Positions 68 to 6,436 of a DNA stretch of 21,568 bases are shown piece after piece. Location of the stretch: the IMG/VR virus record IMGVR_UViG_3300023284_002194, positions 1 through 21,568 of that record; one strand, 5' to 3'. The position numbers were made by a program, and so were the translations under genes. Numbering within the stretch: position 1 is the stretch's first letter; each line of letters starts with the position of its first letter. The DNA is from a virus. Under the pieces are notes generated by a model. The model was not told the origin of the DNA. It did no database searches and worked only from the letters and a program-made list of their open reading frames with translations.

Positions 68-268
68 CTATCCCCGGATAAGGTTATTCCCATAATTGAT
101 GGTGGTCGTGGTATCGTTTACGTCCGCATCTATGGAAATGCTTTGAACGCCTCTTACTTTGGTGTTGTTGGCTGCAATTATAGATCTCGGATTAACTGCC
201 CTAAAACCCATATATCCAACAAACAACAGGGCCGTAAAAATAATACCTATGAAAAATCCAGGTTTCAT
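68..268 (-). CDS. Small membrane-anchored protein, possibly truncated, 66 aa
   Basis: I chose the ATG at 268 because AAGGAG lies eight bases before it. An upstream ATG at 316 overlaps the beta-helix gene and lacks a site. The product opens MKPGFFIGIIFTALLFVGYM (helix about 5-24) and continues GFRAVNPRSIIAANNTKVRG, then a Thr/Asp-rich end (DVNDTTTTINYGNNLIRG) before TAG. After this TAG the same frame stays open to the left edge and reads CFPSFNITDASYTDPDSITR, similar in composition. The gene may therefore be a truncated or interrupted part of a longer exported protein, or simply end here. Function unknown. Confidence 0.6.
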   Translation of the reverse strand: MKPGFFIGIIFTALLFVGYMGFRAVNPRSIIAANNTKVRGVQSISIDADVNDTTTTINYGNNLIRG

Positions 269-290: not shown

Positions 291-2462
291 CTAATTAAAA
301 GGCTTTCGATTATCAAATACTCTTGTCCTATTGAAAGCTTTTAAGGTATCGGTGCCGCCTCTAAAAAAGGGTGGCCTATTAAATCCAAATTCCCTGGGAA
401 AAAGATCCACAGCCTCCAAAAATTCATCGGCCCCAACATACCATACACTTCGTGTGTCTAAATCAATATCGTCCGAAAAAGCTATATCCACATCGGCACT
501 CAAATCAATCCCTCCGCTTGTTTTTGAGGTATCGGCTACGGCCAAATGGAAGTCATCACTTGCTGAATCTGCAAAAGCCAAACTATCAAAAAACTCTGGT
601 CCTGATTGTGGTCCTGTGCTGTCATCAGTTAAATTACTTGTAGAGGCGACATCAAAGGTTCCAATATAACAGGCCGATCCGCAATCCTGGATTATATTAT
701 TCTTTACAGTCATTGTACCATTCGCAACGCTAATACCTGTATCGCTATTAATAATTGTGTTATTATACATGAAACTGGTCATTCCAGCATCACCCGCACG
801 AATACCAAAACCAAAAGGACCCGGTAAATCATAAATAATATTATTAAATATAAAAGCTCTGCCATTGCTAACATCTTCTATGGATATTCCTTTATGATGA
901 CCATTTGAAGGATTGTCGGATTTAAAAATACAATAAGAGGCAAACCATCTCACCCCGCCTGCACTTCCGCCAGCATCAAATTCTATACAGTCTATAATAT
1001 TTGTATTTGAATTATCAGTAGTAATTTGGAGACCTTCTATACGGACATGGCTTTCTATCACTTGCAAAGCTCCTCTTTTATCGTCTCCTCCGCTTTGGGT
1101 AACAGTAAGCCTGTATTTTGTAGTATCAAATATTCCATTATGTCTATTGTCTTGAGTGGTTAGAATATGGATATAGGCATCTTGCCCGGTGGTCCATCCA
1201 TCGATTTTAAAATTTGCAACATCAGCCGTCACTCCATCACAAAATACTTTCATGGTATCCGGCCCCGTGGTAAGATCTCTTTGCTCGGCGGCTTCCCATT
1301 CATTTAATGAGCTATATGCCCTTCCAACGCCTACGGTATCGTTTGTTTTCCCATTTCCACCGGAGGTAGAAGCTGTATTTACAAATCGAATAATAGTTTT
1401 TCCACCCTGTTCATCAGCACCTATATCCCATTCATTTCCCTGTGGTCTTGCTTGACCTTCGATATCAACCGCAAAAGCCAGATCGGCATCGGCGCTTAAA
1501 TCCTGGCCGCTATCAATAGCTTGGGTGTCTGCAATGGCTAAACGAAAATCATTATTTGCGGAATCAATAAAGGTTATAAGCTTATTTCTAAAGGCTACAT
1601 TCGGGCCCGTGGCATCACTTGAGATATTGTTGGTTGTATCGAATGGATCGAGGCCACTCCAATCTTTAAAATTAGCAGCACTAAAATTATCACATTGTAC
1701 TAAATTATTTCTGTAGATATCCCTATCCGCCCCGGCCGCATCGGCGATCCCTGTTTGAGATCTCGCAATTGTATTATTATAAATAATACCATCTCCATTT
1801 GAGACTTCTATGGCTTCATGGCCACAACCAAGAGTCGTTCTGTCATAAAAATCATAGATTATATTATTGAAAACAAACGTTGTTATTGAATCCACAGAGC
1901 CATCCAAACTAATCCCGACTCCGCTTCTACAAGCGCCCGAACCATCTATGTGAGCGAAAATCATATTATTTGAATAATAATGTACTCCCGTGGCTATAAC
2001 TCCGGATGTTTGTTTGATTGCGGTTCTACCACTCCCGCTCGTAAAACTGGGGAGAAATACTTGCAATCCATCAACCCGCACAAAATCTTCTTGAAGATGT
2101 AGCACAGTTCCGTTTGTATCGGCTACAACAAATTTAGTAAAATCAACCACTCCGTTATGCCTTCTGCCATTTGCCGAATCGGTTGTAACAAGAATAAAAT
2201 TTGTAGCGGTTGTTGTCCATCCCGAAACAGTAAGTCCGCCAGCACCTTGTATATCGTCACCATCACAAAAAACTCTATGAGTATCAGTTAAGACTGTTTG
2301 CTCGGCGGCTTCCCATTCTGGCAAATCGGCATAGGCTCTATTGGCTCCGGTAGTATCATTCGTGGTCCCATCGCCCCCGGCCGTGGAATTGGTATTTACA
2401 AATCTGGTAATCAATCCAAAGGAATTTGTAATGATGAATAGTAATAATATTAGGATTTTCAT
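291..2462 (-). CDS. Exported protein with two right-handed beta-helix domains, 723 aa
   Basis: The N-terminus MKILILLLFIITNSFG is a short signal-peptide-like stretch (Lys2, hydrophobic core 3-11, cleavage probably after Gly16). The rest is two related domains of about 325-335 residues (about 18-350 and 357-679). Each begins with RFVNTxSTxGGxGxTNDTxG and RAYxxLxEWEAAEQ, has repeated NNIIYD and YNNTI turns of a parallel beta-helix, and ends W-D-I-G-A-D-E or Y-V-G-A-D-E. The 'Rp...DIGADE' ending is typical of bacterial surface beta-helix proteins. A short tail (NRPPFFRGGTDTLKAFNRTR) follows. It could be a depolymerase-type spike or a secreted surface protein (moron). No catalytic residues can be named. 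Confidence 0.8.
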   Translation of the reverse strand: MKILILLLFIITNSFGLITRFVNTNSTAGGDGTTNDTTGANRAYADLPEWEAAEQTVLTDTHRVFCDGDDIQGAGGLTVSGWTTTATNFILVTTDSANGRRHNGVVDFTKFVVADTNGTVLHLQEDFVRVDGLQVFLPSFTSGSGRTAIKQTSGVIATGVHYYSNNMIFAHIDGSGACRSGVGISLDGSVDSITTFVFNNIIYDFYDRTTLGCGHEAIEVSNGDGIIYNNTIARSQTGIADAAGADRDIYRNNLVQCDNFSAANFKDWSGLDPFDTTNNISSDATGPNVAFRNKLITFIDSANNDFRLAIADTQAIDSGQDLSADADLAFAVDIEGQARPQGNEWDIGADEQGGKTIIRFVNTASTSGGNGKTNDTVGVGRAYSSLNEWEAAEQRDLTTGPDTMKVFCDGVTADVANFKIDGWTTGQDAYIHILTTQDNRHNGIFDTTKYRLTVTQSGGDDKRGALQVIESHVRIEGLQITTDNSNTNIIDCIEFDAGGSAGGVRWFASYCIFKSDNPSNGHHKGISIEDVSNGRAFIFNNIIYDLPGPFGFGIRAGDAGMTSFMYNNTIINSDTGISVANGTMTVKNNIIQDCGSACYIGTFDVASTSNLTDDSTGPQSGPEFFDSLAFADSASDDFHLAVADTSKTSGGIDLSADVDIAFSDDIDLDTRSVWYVGADEFLEAVDLFPREFGFNRPPFFRGGTDTLKAFNRTRVFDNRKPFN
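426..1394 (-). repeat. Beta-helix domain copy 2 of the 723-aa protein
   Basis: The second homologous repeat covers about residues 357-679. It starts IRFVNTASTSGGNGKTNDTV and ends WYVGADE. The DNA has diverged more than the protein, which suggests an old duplication. Confidence 0.8.
1413..2411 (-). repeat. Beta-helix domain copy 1 of the 723-aa protein
   Basis: The first of two homologous protein-level repeats covers about residues 18-350. It starts ITRFVNTNSTAGGDGTTNDT and ends NEWDIGADE. Its opening 35 residues align with those of copy 2 without gaps. Confidence 0.8.
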
Positions 2463-2896
2463 TTTAGAGCTATATTTTCAAATCGCATTATTCCGAACGA
2501 GGCACTATCCAAGTTTACTTTGTGCTTACGCCTTAGAATCCCGTCTTGGTTTTCTTCACAAAAATATTTCACATCCGCCGCCGTTTTCCCAAATACTTTT
2601 ATGATTTTAAATTTTGGGTTTATGGTTTCCAACATATCGGCTTTGCTGCGAATAGGAAGGATTTTCACACAATCGCCTTTGCGGTATCCGCCGGAATCGG
2701 CATTTAGATTATCTGGCCCATTCCACACAAGGATTTCTATTCCTGGGATGGCCAAAAGGGAATCGACTTGAGCCTCTGTAAGTGTAATACCAGTACCCGA
2801 AAATTGGATGGTACCGCTCACAACGACCAGTCCGGCAACTATGCCCCCGGTAATCCACCCGCCTAATTGTTTGATCTTATCTGTTAAGGTAGCCAC
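2459..2896 (-). CDS. Membrane-anchored protein of unknown function, 145 aa
   Basis: This ORF starts at GTG with an AAAGGA site eight bases upstream, located inside the preceding small gene. The product reads MATLTDKIKQLGGWITGGIV, with one membrane helix at about 13-30 (GWITGGIVAGLVVVSGTI). A soluble part follows with VDSLLAIPGIEILVWNGPD (about 44-62), SGGYRKGDCVKILPI (about 68-82) and CEENQDGILRRKHKVN. The stop overlaps the next start (ATGA), so it is coupled to the beta-helix protein. I do not recognise a family. A membrane-bound partner for the exported beta-helix protein is one idea. Confidence 0.75.
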   Translation of the reverse strand: MATLTDKIKQLGGWITGGIVAGLVVVSGTIQFSGTGITLTEAQVDSLLAIPGIEILVWNGPDNLNADSGGYRKGDCVKILPIRSKADMLETINPKFKIIKVFGKTAADVKYFCEENQDGILRRKHKVNLDSASFGIMRFENIALK

Positions 2897-3048
2897 GAGT
2901 TAGGTCCTTTCTTTCTGTAGTTTTTTGTCCATAAACTTTTTTTAGGTTTTCGTCTAAATCCAACATACTTATTTAGTTTGTAAATAAGCCAGAGGATAAA
3001 GAGTCCTCCGGCTAATATCCACAAAGTTTTAAAGACGAGTTCAATCAT
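2884..3048 (-). CDS. Single-pass membrane protein with basic tail, 54 aa
   Basis: The ORF starts three bases after the holin candidate's stop and overlaps the next start by 13 bases. The product opens MIELVFKTLWILAGGLFILW, has one strong membrane helix (about 4-24), then a basic C-terminal tail (FRRKPKKSLWTKNYRKKGP). The positive tail suggests that the C-terminus stays in the cytoplasm. It may be an antiholin, a spanin-like part or an anchor; I recognise no family. The start lacks a good ribosome site, so translational coupling is likely. Confidence 0.6.
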   Translation of the reverse strand: MIELVFKTLWILAGGLFILWLIYKLNKYVGFRRKPKKSLWTKNYRKKGPNSWLP

Positions 3049-3050
3049 TT

Positions 3051-3257
3051 TTATTTAGGACGTGAAAACATATCGTAGCCACCATTAAGGACCATTAAGC
3101 CCCCAAGGGTAACGACAAACGTCCCAATCGGATCAAGCCAAGGGATTTGGCTCGCATAGGCTTTAATCAAAACACCAATCGCGCTAACCAAGCCACCGAT
3201 CTTTGTGGTTGAATTACCGCTTCCGTTGGGTCGTTTTAGTGATAATGGATTTGCCAT
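3051..3257 (-). CDS. Holin candidate (two membrane helices), 68 aa
   Basis: This 68-residue protein starts MANPLSLKRPNGSGNSTTK, followed by a hydrophobic helix (about 20-36, IGGLVSAIGVLIKAYASQ), a short polar turn (IPWLD) and a second helix (about 43-60, PIGTFVVTLGGLMVLNGG), ending YDMFSRPK. Two helices, small size and the place directly after the endolysin fit a class II holin. A good AAAGGA site lies before the ATG. It could also be a membrane protein of another kind. The holin family cannot be named from the sequence alone. Confidence 0.65.
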   Translation of the reverse strand: MANPLSLKRPNGSGNSTTKIGGLVSAIGVLIKAYASQIPWLDPIGTFVVTLGGLMVLNGGYDMFSRPK

Positions 3258-3276: not shown

Positions 3277-3786
3277 TTAATAAACTTTACGCGCCCGGCC
3301 AAAATCGCCGTGCACGTGTTTTTTGATAGGATGCGGATCGGCTGCGGGAAATCCACAATATTTCATTACCTTTGCCAATAATTCCAGATTAAATTTGGTC
3401 CTTAACTTTCTATTTGAATAGGTCACGTCCACAGCATCATTAAATAAATGTCTGGATTTGGTTGTAACCTTAACGGTTTTTTTCCCTAATTTTCTTCTTA
3501 GTTGATTGATTTCGGCATAAGTTTTTAAATGATGCTCCCAAGTCCGATATGCGGAATTGATTGTTAATGCGACTTCATCCAATCCTTTTAAATTGAAAAC
3601 GCCCTTCATAACATTTAAAGCATCCCGTGTATATTGCAATATCTCAACCATTTTGACAAAATTCCCATATCGTTTATAAATAAAAGATCCCTTAGAATCC
3701 TTACATACAAATTCATCCAAATAAAAATCTGTAGTTATTGGAATCCGATCAGCATTTTTATATCTGGGATGAATAGGCTTTTTCAT
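3277..3786 (-). CDS. Endolysin, M15-family peptidase-like
   Basis: This 169-residue protein matches the peptidase M15 (VanY/M15_3-like) fold of zinc-dependent D-Ala-type endopeptidases that cut peptidoglycan cross-links. It has FYLDEFVCKD near the start (21-30), the SAYR motif at 78-81, SRHLFNDAVD at 111-120 (the S-x-H-x-x-G-x-A-x-D motif with Asn in place of Gly), and HVHGDFG at 157-163. His113, Asp120 and His159 (or His157) are the probable zinc ligands. No signal peptide or cell-wall binding domain is present, so export needs a holin. The neighbours with membrane helices fit a lysis cassette. Confidence 0.85.
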   Translation of the reverse strand: MKKPIHPRYKNADRIPITTDFYLDEFVCKDSKGSFIYKRYGNFVKMVEILQYTRDALNVMKGVFNLKGLDEVALTINSAYRTWEHHLKTYAEINQLRRKLGKKTVKVTTKSRHLFNDAVDVTYSNRKLRTKFNLELLAKVMKYCGFPAADPHPIKKHVHGDFGRARKVY

Positions 3787-4409: not shown

Positions 4410-6257
4410 TTATGGCTCAATTGCAATCTGTTGAGCTATTCCGGTTTGAAAGATTACCATTAATCTTGTTTTAGCGCCACTAACATCCATAAAAATTCTA
4501 CCTTGATTGGTTCCAGCATTTCCGGGAGCGGTGATTTCATCCATTGTGATAAATCCCTGATTTGCTCCACCCGCAGCACCAGCTATAAATAAACCACCAT
4601 CAACACTTGTCGAACCCATAGAGACTTTCCCCGCATTGTTTATCTGCATTCTAATAAATGATGTGACACCGCCATCGAGTGTGGTCAAAAATTGAAGCAA
4701 TCCGGGCATATCATTGCTTGCGGGTGTTCCGTCTACTCTTGAAATAATGGATGCCGCGGTTTCATAATTTACACCATCGGAACCTTGAAAATTTATGCTT
4801 CCTAAAAGTTGTGTACTTCCGACAATTGTATGTGATCCCACGGATGTTGCCTGAGTTTTTCTTAAATGTAATTCTGGGCCTTGGGCAAAAGTTCCGAATC
4901 CCTCTAAAGCTGCGACCCTGACCGCCGCGTCTATATCTAATCCTATGTGTAATTTATCAGTTGAGGCGGGGCTCGCATTGTTAATGCCTACATTTTGATT
5001 TGAGGCAAGCGTAAGCATTTCATTGGCATTGGCATTTGTGAAGAACGCAATGGAGTTGTCGGCGTTATCATGTTTGATAATGCTGATATTTGGATCGGCT
5101 GCATCACCCCAACTAATTAATGCTTCCCCTGCGGCATCACCCACCAAATTAAGTTCGGCATCACTGCTTGCCCCTGTGGATTCTATTTTCAAAGTGCAAA
5201 GTGTGGCTTCTTTTATATGGAGTCTTGTATCCGGTGAGGTCTCACCAATACCAACATTTTGACTTGAGTCAATCACTATAGCCTGTAAGGTATTAACCTT
5301 GAATGTCATTTCATTGGCGGCGTGATTTCCCTTGATCTGCATGACATCTTCATCCCCTGAAACACCCGCATCTGCAAAGTTTAAAATTGAATCTCCGCTA
5401 TCTTCCGCAACAATAACGACAATACAGTCATCAGCCTCACCCGCACTGTTATCAAAAACTGCGACAACTTGACTGCTATAAGTAAGGGGTGAGGCATTTT
5501 CCCCATCCGGTCCTATAACGTGTAAAAAAACATTAGGACTTGTGGTATTAATTCCAATAAACCCGTTTTTACTAATCCTCATTCGTTCGGCCAATGCGGC
5601 TGAACCCGGTCTTGTTTTAAAAACCATTTCGGCTGGCATATCACCAAGTGACGGGGTGCCATCTATACATACTCCGATTTCGGCGGCATCCTCAAGATTG
5701 GTGCCATCAGAGGCTCTAAATTGAAAAACCCCCACTTGATCATTATCAATAACTGTGGCATGAGCCCCTTGTGTTGCGCCTCTGGTTTTTGAAAAAACAA
5801 TAGAGGTGGAGTTTGCGCTGGCCCCAAAACCTTCTACGGTTAAGGCTTTTTCTGTGAGTACATCTTGTCCTATATATACCCTGGAAACAGATCCAAAAGG
5901 TAAAGTGGTCGCGTTTACATTTAATCTAACAAGCGGACCTAATTCAAATTTTGTTCCTGTGACTTTATATTGGGTTACACCTAAAAATTGGATATGAAAT
6001 TCGTCATCAGGTACCCCAGCATCACGATCATTTAAGATTATTAAATCCCCATCAGTATCCATAATGAGATTGAATCCATCGAGATCAAAATTTGTGCTCG
6101 GAAATCCAAGGGCTGCATAAGAGAAAACCGTACCCCCTGGGGCTTTAAATTTTATGAGTTTGGTGTCGGTTTCAAATCCGAGCTGTTTTTCCCTTAAAGT
6201 CGCATTGATAGAAGACGCCGCCGCTATTCTAAGTACATCTTTTAGTTCATTTGCAAT
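4410..6257 (-). CDS. Tail fibre / receptor-binding protein (ATT start), 615 aa
   Basis: The first in-frame ATG is at 6062, but the frame upstream is clearly coding and preceded by AAGGAGG, so I place the start at the ATT at 6257. That gives 65 more residues, opening (M)ANELKDVLRIAAASSINATL and then REKQLGFETDTKLIKFKAPG, which resembles the E-x-G-x-E-T-D-T-x-x-L start of phage fibre domains. The body has repeated fibre signatures: FIGINTTSP, NVGIGETSPDTRLHI and NVGINNASP...KLHI. Two long blocks of the type FQGSDGVNYETAASI...DGTP...DMP...F.T are also present. No S74 chaperone domain is seen at the C-terminus. It should form trimers on the tail tip and bind the host surface. The fibre role is inferred from repeats and position. 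Confidence 0.78.
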   Translation of the reverse strand: MANELKDVLRIAAASSINATLREKQLGFETDTKLIKFKAPGGTVFSYAALGFPSTNFDLDGFNLIMDTDGDLIILNDRDAGVPDDEFHIQFLGVTQYKVTGTKFELGPLVRLNVNATTLPFGSVSRVYIGQDVLTEKALTVEGFGASANSTSIVFSKTRGATQGAHATVIDNDQVGVFQFRASDGTNLEDAAEIGVCIDGTPSLGDMPAEMVFKTRPGSAALAERMRISKNGFIGINTTSPNVFLHVIGPDGENASPLTYSSQVVAVFDNSAGEADDCIVVIVAEDSGDSILNFADAGVSGDEDVMQIKGNHAANEMTFKVNTLQAIVIDSSQNVGIGETSPDTRLHIKEATLCTLKIESTGASSDAELNLVGDAAGEALISWGDAADPNISIIKHDNADNSIAFFTNANANEMLTLASNQNVGINNASPASTDKLHIGLDIDAAVRVAALEGFGTFAQGPELHLRKTQATSVGSHTIVGSTQLLGSINFQGSDGVNYETAASIISRVDGTPASNDMPGLLQFLTTLDGGVTSFIRMQINNAGKVSMGSTSVDGGLFIAGAAGGANQGFITMDEITAPGNAGTNQGRIFMDVSGAKTRLMVIFQTGIAQQIAIEP

Positions 6258-6263
6258 GATAAC

Positions 6264-6270
6264 CCTCCTT
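6264..6270 (-). promoter_or_regulatory. Strong ribosome binding site (AAGGAGG) for a rare ATT start
   Basis: AAGGAGG lies six bases before ATT at 6257-6255, the best-spaced in-frame codon of the fibre gene. No ATG, GTG or TTG is in frame until 6062. The out-of-frame ATG and TTG nearby open only two to four codons before TAA. Confidence 0.75.
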
Positions 6271-6287
6271 ATGAAAAGGTCTTCTAT

Positions 6288-6434
6288 TTAAATTGCTTTT
6301 GCACCACAATCGCAAGCACACATCCAACATTCAATCAATTTGCCATTGGTCCCAACATTTTTGTACCCAACCATTTTTAAAAGAATTAATCTTGTGAATC
6401 TGGCCCCTTTAAAACATCGTCTTGTTTTACTCAT
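6288..6434 (-). CDS. Cys-rich small protein, possible truncated homing-endonuclease zinc-knuckle remnant, 48 aa
   Basis: This 48-codon ORF starts two bases after the tip protein stop (TAGTTATG). The product opens MSKTRRCFKGARFTRLILLK and ends KLIECWMCACDCGAKAI. W-x-C-x-C-D-C-G after a G-x-R-F-x-R-L beta start is the pattern of the N-terminal zinc-knuckle segment seen in phage HNH/AP2 homing-type proteins. There it continues to a SCGC motif, which is absent here: the frame stops right after CDCG. It may be a decayed remnant or a tiny independent protein. It stays in frame with the fibre gene downstream, separated by one TAA and ten codons. Confidence that it is translated is moderate; the family reading is tentative. 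Confidence 0.5.
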   Translation of the reverse strand: MSKTRRCFKGARFTRLILLKMVGYKNVGTNGKLIECWMCACDCGAKAI

Positions 6435-6436
6435 AA

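What the first reader, a model, noticed from the sequence alone, without database searches (positions are those of the whole stretch)
291..2462. Signal-peptide-bearing double beta-helix protein in a phage late region
A 723-residue protein with an N-terminal export signal and two homologous domains ending in DIGADE-type motifs looks like a bacterial surface or secreted protein, not a usual virion part. It is placed after the lysis genes in the same operon. It could be a secreted depolymerase, a surface-modifying moron or a spike that passes through the membrane.
Basis: partly seen in the sequence, partly recalled or inferred. Interest (0 to 1): 0.6.

Follow-up and report, generated by a model that had tools for sequence, protein, structure and literature searches.

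The report
Exported tail-type beta-helix gene pair
A protein family that serves as a tail appendage in some tailed phages has, in this phage and at least three others, acquired an export signal together with its neighbouring partner protein, so the pair probably works outside the infected cell's cytoplasm rather than being built into the particle in the usual way.

Summary
The gene is on the minus strand (2462 to 291): 723 aa, a Sec-type signal peptide (MKILILLLFIITNSFG), two tandem right-handed beta-helix domains (about 45% identical) ending DIGADE/VGADE, placed after an endolysin and small membrane genes.

It belongs to a family without Pfam or PHROG models. Pattern and profile scans found about 40 relatives in IMG/VR phages and a separate clade of multi-unit proteins in Patescibacteria and Bdellovibrionota. 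Most phage relatives have no signal peptide; one is fused to a tail-tube domain and one to collagen-like tail-fibre repeats, so the family's usual role looks virion-associated.

The gene follows a small conserved partner gene (here 2459-2896) in about two dozen phages. In four of them (window, L080, L083, L097) both genes carry an N-terminal export or membrane signal; in the 20 other distinct pairs neither does. The four do not form one clade (AU p = 0.023), implying at least two paired gains.

Best reading: a tail-appendage pair diverted through Sec to act in the envelope or attach to virions at lysis. Export is well supported by sequence, function is not. No catalytic site is evident. Novelty: new variant of a known kind; interest 0.55.

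The parts
291..2462 (-). Signal-peptide-bearing tandem beta-helix protein, 723 aa (P0001)
2415..2462 (-). Predicted Sec signal peptide, residues 1-16 (MKILILLLFIITNSFG); relatives without a signal peptide start at the next residues (M-ITRYVNT)
   Evidence: sequence
1410..2414 (-). Beta-helix domain 1, ends WDIGADE
414..1409 (-). Beta-helix domain 2, ends WYVGADE; best-modelled part
294..413 (-). C-terminal tail of about 40 residues, low-confidence in the model
2459..2896 (-). Partner gene, 145 aa, GTG start: N-terminal transmembrane segment (about residues 11-30) plus C-terminal partner domain (GGYRKGDCVKI...FKIIKV); overlaps the helix gene by ATGA
68..268 (-). 66 aa ORF with N-terminal hydrophobic segment, directly downstream of the helix gene; role unknown
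   Evidence: sequence
2884..3048 (-). 54 aa ORF with one transmembrane segment and basic tail (lysis-type small membrane protein?)
   Evidence: read from sequence
3051..3257 (-). 68 aa membrane protein, holin-like by position and hydrophobicity
3277..3786 (-). Endolysin, M15/VanY-like peptidase
   Evidence: PHROG endolysin E 1.6e-5; VanY 0.0041, below cut-off
4410..6062 (-). Conventional tail-fibre protein without signal peptide
   Evidence: phrog_9942 E 3e-40

Best explanation
The gene is the second half of a two-gene phage module (small partner + beta-helix appendage). In most phages that carry it the pair is made in the cytoplasm and, judged from fusions to tail-tube and tail-fibre parts, becomes part of the virion tail. 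In this phage both genes have N-terminal targeting signals: the partner a membrane anchor that should leave its domain in the periplasm, the helix protein a signal peptide cleaved near residue 16. The pair is therefore exported through Sec late in infection and meets outside the cytoplasm. There the tandem helices most likely act as a binding appendage, either coating the host envelope before lysis or attaching to virions and debris at lysis. Shown by sequence: family, pairing, matched signals, recurrence, fold. Inferred: export, cleavage, topology, and what it binds. The confidence given is for the exported two-gene module; the binding role on its own is nearer 0.3.
For: Domain homology across about 40 phage proteins and cellular multi-unit proteins. 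Partner gene immediately upstream in about two dozen phages; the window's partner is recovered by a profile built without it (E 9.7e-4 among 1411 proteins), and nearly all other proteins at that level are positional partners. Matched signals: 4 pairs with both, 20 distinct pairs with neither, 0 mixed (Fisher p 9e-5, not corrected for relatedness). SP-bearing viral members are not one clade (AU p 0.023), so at least two joint gains. In L080, L083 and L097 no start codon lies near the domain start, so the signal peptide must be translated. Tail association of SP-less members: L031 fused to a tail-tube domain (E 7e-12), L036 to collagen-like tail-fibre repeats; L040 next to a virion structural gene. 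More SP-bearing genes nearby: L097 glycine-rich tail-fibre-assembly type, L083 654 aa, L080 565 aa with tail-fibre-like C-terminus. Beta-helix fold, Z up to 21. A Moranbacteria genome carries a helix protein and a membrane-anchored partner homologue 1.4 kb apart.
Against: No proteomics; the signal peptide is called by inspection and a simple rule, not SignalP. The window's partner is a remote homologue and its TM form differs from the cleavable signals in the other three. The TTG at residue 17 could be an SP-less start. Only four exported cases; branches are long and many nodes weak. Neighbourhood enrichment of SP genes is modest (11/226 near against 3/306 far, p 0.011) and driven by the same loci. 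Function outside the cytoplasm is not demonstrated.
Confidence: 0.6

Rival explanations
1. Moron-type envelope protein: the exported pair coats or modifies the host surface (blocking superinfection, adhesion, biofilm) and never joins the virion. This is one of the two end-states left open by the best explanation.
For: Signal peptide and membrane-anchored partner; cellular relatives are multi-unit proteins that look secreted; position after lysis genes and separate from the conventional SP-less tail fibre at 4410-6062.
Against: Phage relatives sit in structural operons and two are fused to tail parts; in L080 and L083 the SP-bearing pair lies between terminase and portal/connector genes, not at an operon end typical of morons.
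Confidence: 0.35
2. Virion spike with post-export assembly: the signal is cleaved, the protein waits in the periplasm and binds virions as they are released at lysis. This is the other end-state left open by the best explanation.
For: Tail association of SP-less homologues; co-exported fibre-like neighbours in L080, L097, L083.
Against: No tailed-phage precedent found in the papers searched; no virion data.
Confidence: 0.3
3. Ordinary tail spike translated from the TTG at residue 17; the upstream hydrophobic stretch is an untranslated or incidental extension.
For: TTG-ITRF aligns with the start of SP-less relatives such as L040 (MITRYVNT).
Against: ATGA overlap couples translation to the SP start; the TTG lacks a spaced Shine-Dalgarno sequence; three other phages have signal peptides with no alternative start, each with an SP-bearing partner.
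Confidence: 0.12
4. Secreted polysaccharide depolymerase released to degrade capsule or biofilm.
For: Best solved folds are polysaccharide lyases and glycosidases of the beta-helix class.
Against: Conserved positions are mostly Asn/Gly/Thr ladder and cap residues; no evident conserved acid/base or metal cluster across 45 viral domains; the fold alone shows no function.
Confidence: 0.12

Closest known systems
Choice-of-anchor Q domain proteins (NCBIfam NF041518)
   Same: C-terminal DIGADE-type motif of a beta-helix unit; often on secreted bacterial proteins
   Different: Match is 23.8 bits against a cut-off of 25; only about the last 40 residues of the unit are covered; no known sorting anchor seen
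Phage tailspikes and pectate-lyase-like beta-helix proteins (e.g. Sf6/HK620 tailspikes, Pam1 tailspike; PL9 Pel9A)
   Same: Right-handed parallel beta-helix (Z up to 21)
   Different: Signal peptide, tandem duplicated domain, export-signal-bearing partner, no evident catalytic residues, about 10-14% identity only
Phage morons and superinfection-exclusion envelope proteins (from general knowledge: lambda Lom/Bor, T5 Llp)
   Same: Phage-encoded proteins exported to the host envelope
   Different: Those are small lipoproteins or outer-membrane proteins, not derived from tail appendages
SAR endolysins and spanins (general knowledge)
   Same: Tailed-phage late proteins using Sec
   Different: Lysis function; the partner's domain family occurs without TM in structural operons, which argues against a spanin

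Membership tests
Choice-of-anchor Q domain protein | Match to NF041518 above its curated cut-off | tested here: not met
   23.8 bits against 25, E 3.9e-5
Choice-of-anchor Q domain protein | C-terminal cell-surface sorting anchor | tested here: inconclusive
   by inspection: 40-residue basic/Phe-rich tail, no recognisable anchor; not modelled confidently
Right-handed parallel beta-helix fold | Beta-solenoid structure matching solved beta-helices | tested here: met
   (domain 2; domain 1 by homology)
Phage tailspike / receptor-binding protein | Part of the virion, attached through an N-terminal head- or tail-binding domain | not testable with these tools
   the N-terminus is a signal peptide; two SP-less relatives are fused to tail parts
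Polysaccharide lyase / depolymerase | Conserved catalytic residues | tested here: inconclusive
   no conserved charged cluster typical of a catalytic site; sites specific to single members cannot be excluded
Sec-exported protein | N-terminal signal peptide (n, h, c regions) | tested here: met
   by rule and inspection only
Partner family (defined here) | Gene immediately upstream of the helix gene and profile match | tested here: met
   E 9.7e-4 in 1411 proteins with a profile that excludes the window

The most novel reading that the evidence does not exclude
Some tailed phages route a whole tail-appendage module (partner, beta-helix and fibre-like neighbours) through the host's Sec pathway, gained repeatedly and in matched pairs, so that virion-type appendages are displayed on the host envelope or added to particles only at lysis.
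Probability: 0.35. Interest if true: 0.8.

Novelty: new variant of a known kind. Interest (0 to 1): 0.55.

Why it matters
Structural appendages of tailed phages are, as generally understood, assembled in the cytoplasm. Repeated, paired gain of export signals on a tail-type module would mean that some phages either decorate particles outside the cytoplasm or reuse tail parts as envelope proteins. It also links a phage family to secreted-looking multi-unit proteins of Patescibacteria and Bdellovibrionota, and gives a testable two-gene unit that Pfam and PHROGs do not yet describe.

Tried and rejected
Direct tblastn of the protein in annotated phages and plasmids: no match; same with the relative L055. 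Viral scans with the single protein, the two-domain alignment, the partner and TerL gave nothing; the degenerate N-terminal motif GG[DN]G[TK]TN was what worked. Pfam and PHROG give no family for the helix protein; the weak Rrp44_S1 hit (E 0.044) is chance. The idea that only this phage has a signal peptide was rejected after L080, L083 and L097 were found. Spanin identity of the partner was considered and set aside: relatives without TM lie in structural operons. Partner fold: no PDB match (best Z 3.2, model pLDDT 64), so left open. A partner homologue was found in only 1 of 240 sampled genomes of the Moranbacteria genome's phylum, so the cellular pairing is rare. The host could not be assigned. 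Literature searches found no precedent, but only open-licence papers are held.

Full report
WHAT IS THERE. The reported ORF is real but lies on the minus strand (ATG 2462, stop 293-291), 723 aa. Its first 16 residues, MKILILLLFIITNSFG, have the layout of a Sec signal peptide. Two tandem domains follow, 45% identical in a full-length MAFFT alignment and 38.6% by BLASTP, ending WDIGADE and WYVGADE, then a tail of about 40 residues. The start codon overlaps the stop of the preceding gene (ATGA). The window is the late region of a tailed phage, all on the minus strand: TerL, portal, capsid region, tape measure, tail fibre, then an endolysin (3277-3786), small membrane ORFs (3051-3257, 2884-3048), a 145 aa gene (2459-2896), the helix gene and a 66 aa hydrophobic-start ORF (68-268).

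FAMILY. Pfam and PHROGs have no model for it; NCBIfam choice-of-anchor Q matches the end of domain 1 at E 3.9e-5, slightly below its cut-off. A genome scan found relatives in Patescibacteria and Bdellovibrionota: long proteins with several units, each unit usually ending DIGADE or a close variant; several whose start is complete carry a signal-peptide-like N-terminus. The best viral query was the N-terminal motif GG[DN]G[TK]TN-T-G[AV]; two scans and profile searches gave about 40 distinct phage relatives, matching over the whole domain. No isolate phage in the annotated collection matched.

MOST PHAGE RELATIVES ARE NOT EXPORTED. They start directly at the domain (MA--TRYVNTASTAGGDGTTNATSGANRAY). 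Two fusions point to the virion: L031 carries a C-terminal tail-tube domain (PHROG 4542, E 7e-12) and L036 collagen-like tail-fibre repeats. L040 has a virion structural gene next to it, L061 and L062 have the major capsid gene a few genes away, and L054 has the tape measure immediately upstream.

THE PARTNER GENE. In about two dozen phages the gene immediately upstream encodes a small protein, mostly about 120-210 aa, with a shared core (ARG-YKRGDIVEV ... PF-LI-V-G ... RR-Y-I). The window's 2459-2896 product is a remote member: a profile made without it gives E 9.7e-4 among 1411 proteins, and at that level nearly all other matches are positional partners. It has an extra N-terminal stretch of about 50 residues with a transmembrane segment. 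A membrane-anchored homologue lies 1.4 kb from a helix gene in a Moranbacteria genome, though such homologues are rare in that phylum.

MATCHED EXPORT SIGNALS. Three other phages have a signal peptide on the helix protein: L080 (MKKYLLILILLFACSGYSA), L083 (MKKIVIFILLMLIPVRGFA) and L097 (MKKALLMLMLFPMLSFG). In each the partner also has one. Of 24 distinct pairs, 4 have both signals, 20 have neither and none is mixed (Fisher p 9e-5, without correction for relatedness). The four do not form one clade (AU p 0.023; in the tree they scatter, with weak support), so the paired state arose at least twice. The cellular units form one clade (SH-aLRT 99), and the two window domains are sisters (89), so the duplication happened in this lineage. 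In L080 and L083 the exported pair lies between terminase and portal/connector genes, so these are phage structural operons. Further SP-bearing genes lie nearby: a glycine-rich tail-fibre-assembly type protein in L097, a 565 aa protein with tail-fibre-like C-terminus in L080 and a 654 aa protein in L083. L050 has SP-bearing downstream genes although its helix and partner lack signals. Overall, SP-positive genes are enriched near the helix gene (11/226 against 3/306, p 0.011), with the same loci driving the result.

STRUCTURE. Domain 2 is a confident right-handed beta-helix (Z 21 to a rhamnogalacturonan lyase, 20 to Pel9A, 18 to the Pam1 tailspike). Domain 1 is modelled poorly. Conserved positions are mostly cap and ladder residues without an evident catalytic cluster. 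The partner model is weak (pLDDT 64) and matches no known fold convincingly.

MECHANISM. Shown by sequence: family, gene pairing, matched signals, recurrence, fold. Inferred: Sec export, cleavage near residue 16, partner anchored with its domain in the periplasm, and an extracytoplasmic binding role, either on the host envelope before lysis or on particles and debris at lysis. The evidence does not separate these two. The main technical doubt is the TTG at residue 17, where SP-less relatives start; the ATGA coupling, the lack of a spaced Shine-Dalgarno sequence before that TTG and the three parallel cases without an alternative start argue against it.

VERDICT. The larger point is that a tail-type module has acquired export signals on both genes more than once. 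New variant of a known kind; interest 0.55, higher if export is shown.

Noticed in passing
L079:4596-7592: 998 aa protein with N-terminal signal peptide and a hyaluronidase-type PHROG match (E 9e-10), upstream of an SP-less helix/partner pair
   Followed up: partly
L050:1107-2035: Two SP-bearing genes directly downstream of an SP-less helix gene; one shares 41% identity over 94 aa with the 654 aa SP-bearing protein of L083
   Followed up: partly
L036:1-6752: Phage contig of 182 kb with several paralogues of the helix protein in a row, at least two with collagen-like repeats
   Followed up: no
L002:8261-8830: Moranbacteria 189 aa membrane-anchored homologue of the phage partner protein, 1.4 kb downstream of a multi-unit helix protein
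   Followed up: partly
window 6063-6436: Gap of about 375 bases before the tail-fibre gene; it holds short frames, and the 550 aa fibre ORF may start further upstream at a rare codon or by another route
   Followed up: no
L029 and L030: Only relatives of this phage's portal/capsid block found (portal 38-42% identity), on short contigs that do not reach the helix position
   Followed up: partly
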